A stretch of 64,000 bases of DNA from Brenneria bubanii (GTDB lineage Bacteria; Pseudomonadota; Gammaproteobacteria; Enterobacterales; Enterobacteriaceae). The stretch spans positions 54,129 to 118,128 of the forward strand of contig NZ_JAKMAJ010000018.1 in assembly GCF_022378355.1 (NCBI RefSeq). Direction: 5' to 3'. Of the stretch, positions 3,764 to 63,807 are shown piece by piece (within the stretch, counting starts at the first letter, position 1; each line of letters begins with the position of its first letter). The notes beneath the pieces are model-generated. The model was not told where the DNA came from. It saw nothing but the letters and a program-made list of their open reading frames with translations, and did not search any database. A program made the translations under genes and the position numbers.

Positions 3764-4444
3764 TCAGCGAGGTTGCCGCAGCGCGCCTTTAAATTGCTGG
3801 AATTCGGGGAGTGATGGCGCCCGCCACAAATACCAGGACGCTATAGTGCGATAAGGTCGACAGGCCTGGCTTAGCGCAAGCAGAGTACGGCGTGTCGGCA
3901 TAAGCGGTAGATCGTAAACGTAGCGCAGCCCTTGCTTAATGCCCAGATCATCCAGCGGCATAATGTCCGTTCGCTCAAGGGAATAAATCAGAAACATTTC
4001 CACCGTCCAGCGGCCAATACCTTTTAACGAGCTGAGCTGTGCGATAAGCGTTTCGTCGTCCATGGCTTGCGCCTGTCGAAGGGAAGGCACCAGTCCGTTG
4101 AGCGCGCCTTGCGCAATGGCATGCAGCGTTTCCACCTTACGGACGGAAAAGCCGCATTGTCGCAGCGTATCGGCGGAGCAAGACGCGACTTGTTCCGCGC
4201 TGGGAAATGCTTGACCGCCTTCATCATGCACGCGCAGCAGTTTCGCCACCATCGCGTCGCCTGCCCGGGTGGTTAGCTGCTGGTGCGCGACCGCGCGTAT
4301 CAATGCCTCATAGGGCTCTCTGTGCGGCGCGGTTTGATGACGGCAGTCGCCGATGCGGGATATCAGTCGCGCCCAGCGATCGTTTATCGTACTCAGGTGC
4401 CTGTTGGCCTGCTGGTGGAAACGTTGTTGGCGATGGCCTGTCAT
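3764..4444 (-). CDS. DNA-3-methyladenine glycosylase, AlkA type (short form)
   Basis: 226 aa HhH-GPD base-excision glycosylase that removes alkylated purines. The helix-hairpin-helix and catalytic region read LKGIGRWTVEMFLIYSLER followed by PLDDLGIKQG, with the catalytic Asp in the DD pair. It is about 55 residues shorter than E. coli AlkA (282 aa), lacking that protein's N-terminal TBP-like domain, so it resembles the compact AlkA2/MAG-like forms. The ATG at 4444 directly follows an in-frame TTG at 4447; the latter is better spaced from AGGA and may be the true start. Divergent from ada-alkB, it completes an adaptive-response block. Confidence 0.88.
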   Translation of the reverse strand: MTGHRQQRFHQQANRHLSTINDRWARLISRIGDCRHQTAPHREPYEALIRAVAHQQLTTRAGDAMVAKLLRVHDEGGQAFPSAEQVASCSADTLRQCGFSVRKVETLHAIAQGALNGLVPSLRQAQAMDDETLIAQLSSLKGIGRWTVEMFLIYSLERTDIMPLDDLGIKQGLRYVYDLPLMPTRRTLLALSQACRPYRTIASWYLWRAPSLPEFQQFKGALRQPR

Positions 4445-8710: not shown

Positions 8711-9407
8711 TGTCGATTTCTCCCCGTCTGCCCGGCACGCGATAGAGTTGCGGCTCGGTGCCAAGATAAACTTTTGACCGGTAGGTTGAATTGCTCTGAA
8801 TCATTTTCGAAATATCGCTTTCAGGATCGTTCAGATCGCCAAAGACCAGCGCTTTGGTCGGACATATTTCAACACAGGCAGGTTGTTTACCTGCCGCCAG
8901 ATTGGTTTCCCGGCAAAAATTACATTTGTCCGCCGTTTTACTCACCGGGTTAATGAAGCGGACATGATAAGGGCAGGCGGCGATGCAGTAACGGCAGCCG
9001 ACGCAATGTTTATCATTGACGTCGACGATGCCGGTTAATGCATCTTTAAATGAAGCGCCCGTCGGGCAGACGGAAACACAGGGGGGATTTTCACAGTGCT
9101 GACAGGATTTACGAAAATACTGCCTGAATGCCCGGGTCTTCCCTTGCGCGGGAATATCGACCGTCTTCAGTATTTCCAGCCGGGTGACGCCATCGGGCAC
9201 ATGGTTGGTGGTTTTACAGGCGCCTACGCAGGCATTACAGCCAATGCAGCGTTGCTCATTGTGCAGCAGACCGTATTTGACGCCTTTGGGGTTCGTGGTC
9301 CTGGCGGGTTCTTCCGCGGTTTGTGCGAGCGCGAGGCTGGAATTACCGGTAACGACAATGGCGCTTCCCAGGTAAGCCATAAAACGACGACGAGAAAATT
9401 CTTCCAT
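8703..9407 (-). CDS. NrfC-like periplasmic 4x[4Fe-4S] ferredoxin, Tat-exported
   Basis: 234 aa. The N-terminus has a twin-arginine signal (SRRRFMAYLG plus hydrophobic stretch ending ALAQ). Four cysteine clusters follow: CIGCNACVGAC, CQHCENPPCVSVC, CVGCRYCIAAC and CNFCRE...CVEIC, enough for four [4Fe-4S] centres as in NrfC, DmsB and PsrB. It should shuttle electrons from the NrfD-type membrane partner to a periplasmic reductase. Length and spacing are closest to NrfC (E. coli 223 aa). First gene of a three-gene minus-strand unit. Confidence 0.88.
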   Translation of the reverse strand: MEEFSRRRFMAYLGSAIVVTGNSSLALAQTAEEPARTTNPKGVKYGLLHNEQRCIGCNACVGACKTTNHVPDGVTRLEILKTVDIPAQGKTRAFRQYFRKSCQHCENPPCVSVCPTGASFKDALTGIVDVNDKHCVGCRYCIAACPYHVRFINPVSKTADKCNFCRETNLAAGKQPACVEICPTKALVFGDLNDPESDISKMIQSNSTYRSKVYLGTEPQLYRVPGRRGEIDNA

Positions 9408-9454
9408 AACATAACCTTCACATTGAAACTACAGCCATGCTGAAACGTGGTGTC

Positions 9455-9479
9455 GATATCAGCAGATCATCGTGATATC
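9455..9479. promoter_or_regulatory. Inverted repeat upstream of the nrfC-like gene
   Basis: Perfect 7-bp arms GATATCA and TGATATC separated by 11 bp, 48-72 bp before the start codon. Position and symmetry fit an operator for a dimeric regulator. No regulator can be named. Confidence 0.4.
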
Positions 9480-10185
9480 CCGCTATCCTTCATGCCGCAG
9501 CCGTCATGGTCCCCACGGCCGACTTCCGCTATTCATCTTCTGGAACGCGTAGGGGGGCGCCGGGCTGCATCTTGAAAGCTATTGGGCGCAGGTTTTTGTT
9601 GGCTTCCGCTCATTCTGACGATAAATGAAATTATTCCTGAGCTGTGCAACAAAAAAACTAATCGGGAAAAGGGCGCCAATCTGGCATCAGAGGTAATTTT
9701 TATGACTTAAAATATTCCGGGTCAGACGGCTAACTTACCCATAATCCATATTCTTGTTATTCGTTTTTATTTGACCATAGGGACAACGGGATGATTGTGC
9801 TCTTAGTCACATTTATTTCTTTGTGTATCTATATGAAAGAAACATTAATCTACTATAACCGTTTTTTATTTGGCTAACTCGCGCCAATATTTCAGTTCGA
9901 TGAAAACTGAATTATCTGCGACATAATGAATGGCGGTTTTGCAAATAATTTGCATTTGCGTTAGTGATATTTATTTAAATATTGTTAACGTAGTGGTAAT
10001 TAAAATAGTGAATTTGTGACGGATAATATGAATAGATGCTGCCGACGTCGCTTTGGCTGATTGATATAAAATGAAGATCCGCTGCTCCTCCCTTCCTCTG
10101 GCTCTTGCTGCGAACTGCTTATCGCTTGCCTGAAAATATGCCATCAAGACCAGTTTTCCCTGCCGCCGGATCCGGAATGCATAAA

Positions 10186-61489: not shown

Positions 61490-61930
61490 GTGATACGTAA
61501 ACTAAAAAAAAATGATAGTCAATGGACCATGGAAAGTGTAAGCGATCCACTTTTTAAATATGAAGAGCATGGGTTGGAAATCTCCTTTATGATATTTATA
61601 GGCGATGATGAAAGGAAAAAACACATCAACGATTATATGAAAAAAAATAATATAAAGCATGAGGGTGACATTCCGGATGACGTTTACAATAATGCCGGTT
61701 ATGCAGTTATCTACTTTAATTTCAATGGGTTTGATGAACTATTTTGCACTAGCACTAATGATTTTTTAAAGAAAATAAATCAGGCCGATAAGATAACACC
61801 CGGTGTCTATGAAGAGATAGACGACGACGATAAAATAAAGGGATATGTTTTCATCGGTCATGATATATCACTGTCAGTATACACAAAAAAAGCCCCTTTG
61901 GATCGTATAAAAAATATACTGAAGGCATAA
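61490..61930 (+). CDS. Immunity-like small acidic protein of unknown family
   Basis: 146 aa from a GTG with AAGG eight bases upstream. Not recognised. It is cytoplasmic, charged, rich in Asp/Glu/Lys (EEIDDDDKIKGYVF) and coded by AT-rich DNA unlike the preceding genes. Such small, acidic, AT-rich orphan genes beside Rhs remnants are usually toxin-immunity genes of displaced C-terminal modules, and that is the inference here. No matching toxin tip is seen next to it. Confidence 0.65.
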   Translation: MIRKLKKNDSQWTMESVSDPLFKYEEHGLEISFMIFIGDDERKKHINDYMKKNNIKHEGDIPDDVYNNAGYAVIYFNFNGFDELFCTSTNDFLKKINQADKITPGVYEEIDDDDKIKGYVFIGHDISLSVYTKKAPLDRIKNILKA

Positions 61931-62061
61931 GTCTTATTACCAAAGTAATTAGATGGCGATTGCTTCCCAAATGATAACTTGATTTCATTTGATATGAGAA
62001 TGTTATTGGCTGAATTGAAAGTGAAATGTATCAGTGTGTCTGTTACGATTGGGTTATATAA

Positions 62062-62390
62062 AATCCGTCGAAAGTTTATTATTTATTTTATATTTTGAGT
62101 TGTTTATCTGTAGTGGATGAACCTGATCAATTTTTACTATGTCTACGGATGTTGAAAAGTGAGGGGTTAAATACATCAGATGAAAGATATTTAGATAAAA
62201 TATACTATAAAAGATAGATAAGTTAAAAATTATAGATGATGTGCGCGAGCATTTATTTATTTGCAAGGCAATATCAAAGCCTGTACGTTCATCATTGTTT
62301 AAAAACAGGTTTGAATTGCTAAAATTATGTGGTGTGAAATTTTTAAAGATAGATGATAATTATAAATATGATGCCTGGAGTGGCTGGTGA
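62062..62390 (+). pseudogene. Frameshifted immunity-like gene
   Basis: Two adjoining open stretches read as one protein interrupted by a one-base shift. Frame one, to the TAG at 62215: DEPDQFLLCLRMLKSEGLN then TSDERYLDKIYYK. Frame two, from 62211 to the TGA at 62388: KIDKLKIIDDVREHLFIC, then SLFKNRFELLKLCGVKFLKI and DAWSGW. No clear start or ribosome site is visible. Amino-acid texture resembles an immunity protein; family not recognised. Confidence 0.5.
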
Positions 62391-62573
62391 ATTTTGTCAA
62401 AGCAGAAAGTTAAACATTGCCTTAATAAATCTGAATTAGCACCTGACAGGTTAGGCGCAGCAGACGCCGAAAGCCATGCTATAGGACGATAAATGGTTGC
62501 GGAAAAGGAGATAGTTGACGCGGGACTCGGGGGGCTGGCAGATCCGAAATAGCAAAAGCGGCCTGTGCGATGA

Positions 62574-62650
62574 CCGATTTCTGTACTACGAGCCGACCGG
62601 CGGAGGGGATTGCCTGACCCGTTAGTGTGGCTGGGTGAGGCTAACCCGGA
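62574..62650 (+). pseudogene. Degenerate Rhs core end, remnant A
   Basis: Translates to RFLYYEPTGGGDCLTR, resembling the Rhs RYYEPxxGRFxxQDPIGLAGG end with frameshift and stop damage; bases after it (TGACCCGTTAGTGTGGCTGG) align with a decayed QDPIGLAG codon string. Too short and damaged to be functional. Confidence 0.5.
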
Positions 62651-62757
62651 TGCGTAGGTATATAACCCACCGTGTAGTAAAGTTATGTTTTAGTCGCTTT
62701 ATTTGCCGCATCGTCTGACTTGGAATGCTTCTTGTCCATAGTCAACTTTCTCTGCGG

Positions 62758-63176
62758 CGGGCGGTAGCGTGAGCAATTTCCTGCGCTATGACGACTGAAT
62801 GAGGGGAGTTTACAGCCGAAACAAGCAGTACGAACCGAAAATCGGATAGACCATTGCGTAGGACCTGATAGGGCTGGCGGGTGGGATAAGGCCACAGGGG
62901 GATGTTTATAATCTGCTGACCCGTGTTGATCCGCCAGGATTAGCTGAATCTGCATGTGAATAGCTGCATAAGATATTTGATAATATTGAGGAAAGTCGGA
63001 GAACCTGGGAATCATCTAATTTCTTGGCTCATAATGAGTGGCCGCCAAATAGAGCCTCGAAACCGGGGTCAGATGGTAGACCCTATAATGTTTATGAAGT
63101 TACTAAGCCGATTACTGTTGGTACCGGTGATGTCACAGGCTGGTTCGGATGTGAAGGTGGCGGAACTCAGTATTAA
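62758..63176 (+). pseudogene. Rhs core remnant B with TNT-type toxin tip
   Basis: In one frame, with three or more stops, it reads QYEPKIG, stop, then DLIGLAGG (from QDPIGLAGG, Gln codon now TAG at 62859), NLLTRVDPPGLAESACE, stop (62961), and the tip HKIFDNIEESRRTW...NEWPPNRASKP then RPYNVYEVTKPITVGTGDV and WFGCEGGGTQY, ending at the TAA 63174. The ending is characteristic of TNT (DUF4237) toxins, NAD+ glycohydrolases. About 40 residues usual between WPPN and YNVYEV are absent, so the tip also looks internally deleted. Not expected to make active toxin. Confidence 0.7.
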
Positions 63177-63235
63177 TTATCAGATAATATAATAAATTTA
63201 TTGAATAATGTTTCGTTAAAGATATTGTAATTTTC

Positions 63236-63475
63236 ATGAATAAAAAAGAGTTAAAAGAAAGGCTTGTAAAAGAAAAAATCTCGAGATCTTTATATTCCTT
63301 GGATGGCGGTTTACCAAATGAAAAATTATGTCTCGAGCACGAAAATGGTTTTTGGGTTGTTTATTATTCAGAAAGAGGTGTTAAAACCGGGATGATAAGT
63401 TTCCTGAGGGAATGTGAAGCCTGTAAATATATATATGATCAAATTAATGCGGTTTTTTCTGGTAATGTAAAATAG
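63236..63475 (+). CDS. Small protein, probable cognate immunity to the TNT tip
   Basis: 79 aa, intact, 59 bp after the TNT stop. SLYSLDGGLPNEKLCLEHEN then WVVYYSERGVKTG matches a pattern I recall in small proteins found beside TNT-domain toxins (YSLxGGLPNExYCL...W.VYYSERGxKTG). The AT-rich composition fits the surrounding tail. Immunity by binding the toxin is the inferred role. The ribosome site is poor. It could be retained protection against kin strains. Confidence 0.7.
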   Translation: MNKKELKERLVKEKISRSLYSLDGGLPNEKLCLEHENGFWVVYYSERGVKTGMISFLRECEACKYIYDQINAVFSGNVK

Positions 63476-63647
63476 ATAAACAGCCGTAAGTTATTACGCG
63501 ATCCTTCCGTTTTTTATTTTATTAGCGATTAGTTGCTATAAATTAATCTGCGTCTCAATAATAATTCCCCCCTTTCTACCGTCAAGGTGACAGGTATGCC
63601 GGTGATAAAACCGGACTTTTCGAGCCAACGGCCTTTGAGGCTGATGA

Positions 63648-63807
63648 CGGGCGGTAGCGTGAGCAATTTCCTGCACAATGACGACTGAATGAGGGAGTTT
63701 ACAGCCGAAACAAGCAGTAAGAACCGAAAATCGGATAGACCATTGTACAGGACCCAATAGGGGTTGATGAATGTAATATAGTCCATCGGGTAGTGACTTC
63801 TGAATAA
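63648..63807 (+). pseudogene. Degenerate Rhs core end, remnant C
   Basis: The first 116 bp repeat remnant B at about 92% identity with one single-base gap. The Gln codon survives here: QDPIG is encoded at 63748-63762, then VDECNIVHRVVTSE and a stop. Stops at the expected Arg of IGR (TAG 63736) and upstream (TGA) are shared with remnant B. It is followed by a different tail than B. Confidence 0.65.

What the first reader, a model, noticed from the sequence alone, without database searches (positions are those of the whole stretch)
62758..63475. Internally deleted TNT toxin tip next to an intact immunity gene
In one frame the sequence ends YNVYEV...WFG-EGGGTQY, the hallmark of the TNT (DUF4237) NAD+ glycohydrolase family, after a decayed Rhs core. 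WPPN joins the YNVYEV block directly; other family members have some 40 residues between, including catalytic positions. The gene behind it, 63236-63475, is open and matches small proteins that accompany TNT toxins. A toxin lost while immunity is kept is the signature expected of orphan protection in polymorphic toxin systems. Seen: the frames, motifs and stops. Inferred: deletion and function.
Basis: partly seen in the sequence, partly recalled or inferred. Interest (0 to 1): 0.75.

Follow-up and report, generated by a model that had tools for sequence, protein, structure and literature searches.

The report
Broken toxin beside intact immunity gene
A bacterial toxin gene of a known NAD-destroying family has lost an essential part while the small gene that normally protects the cell from it stays intact, a pattern seen again in related bacteria that may leave the cell shielded against rivals that still use such toxins.

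Summary
Window 62967-63173 matches Pfam TNT (PF14021, 44.2 bits, cut-off 27). It lacks the 38 or 45 residues, DRYG included, that 11 of 11 complete enterobacterial TNT domains carry behind the WPPN position, and a stop at 63174 removes the C-terminus. No complete TNT domain was found in this draft genome. The 79-aa gene at 63236-63475 is open; its family matches nothing in Pfam, NCBIfam or PADLOC. Of 30 relatives pooled, window included, 9 lie directly behind a complete TNT, 6 behind a broken one, 15 behind none found; of the ten best-scoring, 4/5/1. The same genome holds a second such pair. In one orthologous pair sharing a truncated toxin the immunity gene has dN/dS 0.23. Best reading: orphan immunity left by a dead Rhs-TNT cassette. 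Orphan immunity against a TNT-type Rhs toxin is already shown in Serratia (PMC10539506). For this gene, expression, protection and selection are untested, no intact partner of its own subtype was found, and a neighbouring Imm11 gene is dead. New member of a known kind.

The parts
61490..61930 (+). open 146-aa ORF upstream in the array, unknown
   Evidence: ORF list; no Pfam match over cut-off, none in NCBIfam or PADLOC; found in 1 of 295 family genomes, its own
61949..62387 (+). decayed Imm11-type immunity gene (frame breaks, in-frame stops, first 59 residues not found)
   Evidence: tblastn pieces of the open 208-aa gene of own contig C34; that gene hits Pfam Imm11, 33.7 bits, cut-off 22.1
62596..62739 (-). 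symE remnant, 5' part, antisense to the cassette
   Evidence: tblastn with G296 symE, E 2e-9, stops inside
62759..62942 (+). decayed Rhs core tip and junction repeat
   Evidence: tblastn with G296 Rhs core, 62811-62942; 8 further places in own genome, one of them the second copy below; window 62663-62887/62889 is 83-85% identical to two G296 places
62964..63176 (+). TNT toxin remnant with one internal in-frame deletion, ended by TAA
   Evidence: Pfam PF14021; alignment with 11 complete domains
63177..63230 (+). weak remainder of the TNT tail behind the stop, same frame
   Evidence: alignment over the stop; alone only E 0.3
63236..63475 (+). 79-aa immunity gene, open
63544..63654 (-). symE remnant, 3' part, antisense
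   Evidence: tblastn with G296 symE, E 3e-13
63648..63762 (+). second copy of the decayed Rhs-tip junction repeat (92% to the first)

Best explanation
This is the remains of one orphan Rhs-tip cassette in a decayed rhs array: antisense symE, Rhs tip, TNT-type NAD+ glycohydrolase tip, immunity gene. One in-frame deletion has removed two of three named NAD-binding residues and a stop has removed the C-terminus (shown); the toxin is therefore almost certainly inactive (inferred). The downstream immunity gene stays open (shown) and most likely still makes a small protein that blocks TNT-type toxins injected by competitors that keep an intact cassette (inferred). A genome of the same genus has an intact cassette of this immunity family, though not of the window's own subtype. 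What remains would be one-sided protection.
For: TNT hit and deletion. The NAD-binding residues named in PMC10539506 (TNT Arg757, Tyr765, Gln822; section 11) map by spacing to the Arg of DRYG and the aromatic residue 8 or 16 further on, both absent here, and to the Gln of GTQY, present (my mapping by eye). Immunity link: of 30 loci TNT is complete in 9, broken in 6, not found in 15; in the ten best 4/5/1 (7 of those ten built the profile). Toxin and immunity divergence co-vary over 11 loci: rho 0.48, 2 and 0 of 999 permutations in two runs; 0.40, 13 of 999, without one of two near-identical Photorhabdus rows; 0.53, 4 of 999, with the window and G012 dropped as well. Six genomes with broken or missing TNT were searched and none has a complete one: G144, E. 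sichuanensis and E. sp. Bisph1 no hit, G000, G012 and G219 only broken ones. T6SS sheath gene in 5 of 5 genomes tested, own included. One pair testable after toxin loss, G144/E. sichuanensis: same truncated remnant in both, immunity dN/dS 0.23 (11 nonsynonymous over 168 sites, 11 synonymous over 45; Fisher p 0.0014), no indel in 213 nt against 9 gap runs in the 371-nt remnant and spacer (p 0.03).
Against: No promoter-like site on the + strand of 62400-63236, and no more such sites in the region than in shuffled DNA. A neighbouring Imm11 immunity gene in the same array is dead. The window gene has no close orthologue, so its own selection is untested; the one other pair (own C44 vs G296, whose toxin is intact) gives dN/dS 0.6 on 7 changes, uninformative. 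No intact toxin close to the window's subtype was found. 15 of 30 relatives have no TNT found, and two of those 15 (L057, L061) have a stop inside the match. The G144 and E. sichuanensis toxin remnants are weak by profile (pieces at E 0.02 to 0.35) and rest also on position and mutual identity.
Confidence: 0.72

Rival explanations
1. Neutral leftover: the toxin died recently and the immunity gene has simply not yet been hit.
For: No promoter found; neighbouring Imm11, symE and Rhs tips are decayed; no orthologue to test selection on the window gene.
Against: All 6 loci with a broken TNT, window included, keep an open immunity ORF, though the collection was searched with immunity proteins, which favours open ones; one shared-loss pair shows purifying selection.
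Confidence: 0.2
2. The immunity gene is kept for a different job, such as countering another toxin or regulating a cell gene.
For: 15 of 30 relatives, most of them remote, have no TNT found nearby, and Imm63, to which the family may be distantly related, accompanies several toxins (PMC3482391, passages).
Against: 9 of the 10 best-scoring relatives sit behind a whole or broken TNT; toxin and immunity divergence co-vary.
Confidence: 0.05
3. The apparent deletion and stops are assembly errors in a draft of 533 contigs.
For: The window ends at the contig end, and repeats surround the cassette.
Against: Separate lesions in the toxin, symE, Rhs tip and Imm11, and stop codons in the junction repeat shared with the one-contig genome G296, point to real decay. 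No reads were seen.
Confidence: 0.03

Closest known systems
Serratia marcescens Db10 SMDB11_2280, orphan immunity against the TNT-type Rhs1CT of SJC1036 (PMC10539506; abstract, passages, sections 11 and 12 read)
   Same: An immunity gene without its toxin, directed at a PF14021 Rhs toxin, in a T6SS-bearing bacterium.
   Different: That protein is 88% identical to the 124-aa RhsI1 of SJC1036 and lies behind an intact Rhs pair; here the protein is 79 aa and lies behind a visible toxin wreck. The two proteins' letters were not compared here, so that they are different families is inferred from length.
Orphan cdiA-CT/cdiI and rhs-CT/rhsI modules (PMC4927057, PMC3150448; passages read)
   Same: Displaced tip-plus-immunity cassettes behind the main gene; one E. 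coli CdiA (FCH1) carries DUF4237 = PF14021.
   Different: The passages speak of functional orphan toxins (EC93) as well as fragments; here the toxin is broken.
SAIDI-1 immunity islet of Salmonella Typhi (PMC7400221; passages read)
   Same: Immunity genes kept while the toxins are absent, with Rhs-related fragments near.
   Different: A multi-gene islet; no TNT immunity is named in the passages seen.
Imm63 (PF15599)
   Same: Found behind complete TNT domains (L011 tested by Pfam); shares a YxERG motif; hhalign probability 79%, E 1.7e-5 over 48 columns.
   Different: No Pfam Imm63 hit for the 79-aa protein; about 140 aa instead of 79.

Membership tests
TNT / DUF4237 (PF14021) NAD+ glycohydrolase | Profile score over curated cut-off | tested here: met
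   44.2 bits against 27
TNT / DUF4237 (PF14021) NAD+ glycohydrolase | DRYG Arg and following aromatic residue for NAD binding | tested here: not met
   Absent from the window piece; DRYG present in 11 of 11 complete domains; residue roles from PMC10539506
TNT / DUF4237 (PF14021) NAD+ glycohydrolase | Gln of the GxGTQ motif | tested here: met
   GGGTQY at the end of the piece
TNT / DUF4237 (PF14021) NAD+ glycohydrolase | Complete C-terminus | tested here: not met
   TAA at 63174-63176
TNT / DUF4237 (PF14021) NAD+ glycohydrolase | NAD+ glycohydrolase activity | not testable with these tools
   Inactivity is inferred from the lesions
Orphan Rhs tip cassette | Rhs core tip, toxin tip and immunity gene in this order without a full rhs gene | tested here: met
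   intact counterpart in G296
Orphan immunity gene | Homologous to genes directly behind intact toxins | tested here: met
   9 of 30 loci
Orphan immunity gene | No complete cognate toxin in the same genome | tested here: met
   One TNT place only, the broken one, in a draft of 533 contigs
Orphan immunity gene | Expressed and protective | not testable with these tools
   No promoter-like site found upstream on the + strand
Orphan immunity gene | Maintained by selection after toxin loss | tested here: inconclusive
   Met for one related pair (G144/E. sichuanensis); no orthologue for the window gene
Imm63 (PF15599) | Pfam profile hit | tested here: not met
   No Pfam family for the 79-aa protein; only a weak profile-profile match

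The most novel reading that the evidence does not exclude
Toxin trimming is a recurrent and selected route to one-sided immunity in this family. Deletions remove the toxin and stop short of the immunity gene. In own C44, G012 and G144/E. sichuanensis only 3' stubs of different lengths remain, in E. sp. Bisph1 only an 18-nt trace; the window lost an internal piece instead. The toxin's end may be spared because it carries the immunity gene's start (sequence TGTGGATAG or TGTGGATAA, toxin stop over immunity GTG, in 5 of 10 rows printed). Cells would thus collect a record of past toxins as protection without weapons.
Probability: 0.3. Interest if true: 0.6.

Novelty: new member of a known kind. Interest (0 to 1): 0.42.

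Why it matters
It adds an immunity family for TNT-type NADase toxins that the three libraries scanned do not hold, and a small natural series in which the toxin is lost and the immunity kept, with one pair that shows purifying selection after the loss. That makes the idea that orphan immunity is retained for protection testable by sequence, not only by single experiments.

Tried and rejected
Full-domain reading: PF14021 aligns 15-69 with almost no gap, which at first suggests no deletion; comparison with complete domains shows the gap. Immunity family names: no hit in Pfam, NCBIfam or PADLOC (sub-threshold Pfam matches of relatives not believed); PHROGs not scanned. PDB sequence search: nothing useful (best E 0.73). 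Structure of the immunity protein: mean pLDDT 56.8 from 4 sequences, too poor, so no fold search was run. E. coli genomes (DNA of toxin piece and gene) and phages (immunity protein; 146-aa protein): no match. Plasmids: 7 remote immunity matches, 2 TNT matches, one plasmid (Caballeronia) with both close together. A shared breakpoint at the RA block in unrelated remnants was considered; the cases are too few. A short direct repeat as cause of the deletion was considered, but no close intact relative was found to map it. The toxin/immunity co-variation test used 11 of the 30 loci; C44, G144, E. sichuanensis and G219 were left out for short or scattered pieces, the other 15 have no TNT found. On re-check I corrected one point of my draft: the window's lesion is internal, not a 5' trim.

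Full report
Where it lies. The window is the last 64 kb of contig C18 (118,128 bases) of a 4.89-Mb draft genome of 533 contigs; the window's end is the contig's end. The genus search returned ten genomes, the window's own included. The species was not determined.

The observation. The piece 62967-63173 scores 44.2 bits against Pfam TNT (cut-off 27). I took the 11 complete TNT places (two from G296, nine from the family search; the broken ones were left out) and aligned the window piece with them. All 11 carry 38 or 45 residues between the WPPN position and the RA block, with DRYG inside; the window has none. The spacing from RA to Y(E/K)V is 14 residues in the window and 14 or 15 in the others. 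In addition a TAA stands right behind GGGTQY; what follows in frame is a weak trace of the tail (E 0.3 on its own). PMC10539506 (section 11) names Arg757, Tyr765 and Gln822 of TNT, and Arg1401, Phe1417 and Gln1467 of a Serratia Rhs toxin, as residues suggested to bind NAD(P)+; the spacings of 8 and 16 residues from Arg to the aromatic residue match the two length classes (counted by eye). By that mapping the window has lost the Arg and the aromatic residue and kept the Gln. The toxin is almost certainly inactive; this was not assayed.

The surroundings. The cassette lies in a decayed rhs array. Upstream is a wreck of an Imm11-type immunity gene (61949-62387), whose open paralogue lies on contig C34. 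A symE remnant runs antisense at 62596-62739 and another at 63544-63654; a Rhs-tip junction repeat stands at 62759 and again at 63648 (92% identical), with further copies elsewhere in the genome (nine matches in all, the query itself included) and two in G296 that share one or more of its stop codons. In G296, a one-contig genome of the same genus, the same order is seen with open genes: a long rhs-TNT gene, then orphan tips, antisense symE, and one orphan TNT tip followed by an immunity gene of the window's family. So the window shows a ruined version of a known architecture.

The immunity gene. The 79-aa protein matches no Pfam, NCBIfam or PADLOC family. Relatives were sought in 295 family genomes (6 with a match, own included), 394 order genomes (18), 10 genus genomes (2), 369 class genomes (5) and one scan of named genome contigs (4 loci, two of them already known); the groups overlap. 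I pooled 30 distinct loci and scored TNT pieces on both strands near each. TNT was complete in 9, broken in 6 (window, own C44, G012, G144, E. sichuanensis, G219) and not found in 15. Of the ten best-scoring loci 4 are complete, 5 broken and 1 without TNT; seven of these ten built the profile, so their scores are high by construction. The remnants in G144 and E. sichuanensis are weak by profile (pieces at E 0.02 to 0.35) and are accepted because they lie in order just before the gene and are homologous to each other. The one without TNT, Enterobacter sp. Bisph1, keeps a trace: 16 of 18 bases just before the gene match the end of the E. sichuanensis toxin remnant at the same offset, 0 of 300 shuffles as good; the same test against G296 was negative (174 of 300). 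All six genes behind a broken toxin are open, but the search began from immunity proteins and so favours open ones; two of the 15 without TNT (L057, L061) have a stop inside the match. If independent by locus, the broken cases stem from at least five events, since G144 and E. sichuanensis share theirs.

The second case in the same genome. On contig C44 an immunity gene with 93% amino-acid identity to that of G296 follows a stub of the toxin's end; 97% nucleotide identity to G296 begins within the toxin and a second block, 90% identical, covers symE, so what lay between is gone. There G296 shows what was lost; the window's own cassette has no such close intact counterpart.

Selection. G144 and E. 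sichuanensis share the truncated toxin remnant (84% nucleotide identity over 1050 aligned positions that also cover the gene upstream), so the toxin was most likely already dead in their ancestor. Since then the immunity gene has dN/dS 0.23 with no indel, while the remnant and spacer have 9 gap runs in 371 bases and more substitutions (0.177 against 0.103; Fisher p 0.016). Neither genome has any TNT hit at E 0.001. This is the strongest sign that the family is kept after toxin loss, and it rests on one pair. The pair C44/G296 has only 7 changes (dN/dS 0.6) and says little.

Cognate link. Toxin and immunity distances co-vary over 11 loci (rho 0.48; 2 of 999 permutations, 0 of 999); without one of two nearly equal Photorhabdus rows rho is 0.40 with 13 of 999, and with the window and G012 dropped as well 0.53 with 4 of 999. 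Among these 11 the window's nearest relative in both parts is G012 (toxin piece 56% over 27 residues, immunity 42% over 73), itself broken.

Other immunity types. Complete TNT domains are followed by at least three sorts of small protein: this one, a type of about 125 aa (L010, L016, L017, L018, grouped by eye), and an Imm63 type of about 140 aa (L011-L014; one of the four scanned, Pfam Imm63 at 87.1 bits). The 79-aa family may be a distant relative of the last (hhalign probability 79%, E 1.7e-5, 48 columns ending at the ERG motif). PMC3482391 (passages) lists an Ntox40 domain with a DRxxG motif that goes with Imm63 among others; that Ntox40 equals PF14021 is my guess.

How it probably works. 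A rival with a T6SS and an intact Rhs-TNT tip injects an NAD-destroying domain; the orphan protein, if made, would bind and block it, as an orphan immunity protein protects Db10 in Serratia (PMC10539506, section 12). Five of five genomes tested carry the T6SS sheath gene VipB: own, G144, G012, G219, which hold orphan cases, and G296. Not shown: transcription (no promoter-like site on the + strand of 62400-63236; in E. coli EC93 the orphan region is transcribed from upstream of the main cdiA tip, PMC3150448, passages, and here the array upstream is decayed), binding, or protection. The predicted model of the protein was too poor to use.

Verdict. It is a new member of a known kind; the recurrence and the one selection test raise it above a single pseudogene.

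Noticed in passing
window 62596-62739 and 63544-63654 (-); L046 5884-6216 (+): symE-like genes stand antisense just before orphan Rhs tips, open in G296 and decayed here; in own C44 and G012 the toxin stub lies right next to the symE 5' end. symE beside orphan hcp genes is noted for Pantoea ananatis (PMC3942780, passages).
   Followed up: partly
window 62759-62873 and 63648-63762: A Rhs-tip junction repeat with in-frame stops, 92% identical between the copies and 80-86% to two places in G296, i.e. a dead repeat kept across cassettes and species; it may serve recombination between cassettes.
   Followed up: partly
window 61490-61930: Open 146-aa ORF at the head of the array with no relative in 294 other family genomes; perhaps another orphan immunity gene.
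   Followed up: partly
L047 (G219) 4038-4241 and 9389-9625: G219 carries two broken TNT tips about 5 kb apart, one without its first part and one with frame breaks and a 72-aa immunity relative behind it.
   Followed up: partly
L042 5201-5560 (-) and L067 3257-3616 (+): In G144 and E. sichuanensis a gene that looks SMI1-like by eye (no profile run) precedes the TNT remnant and has dN/dS 0.27.
   Followed up: no
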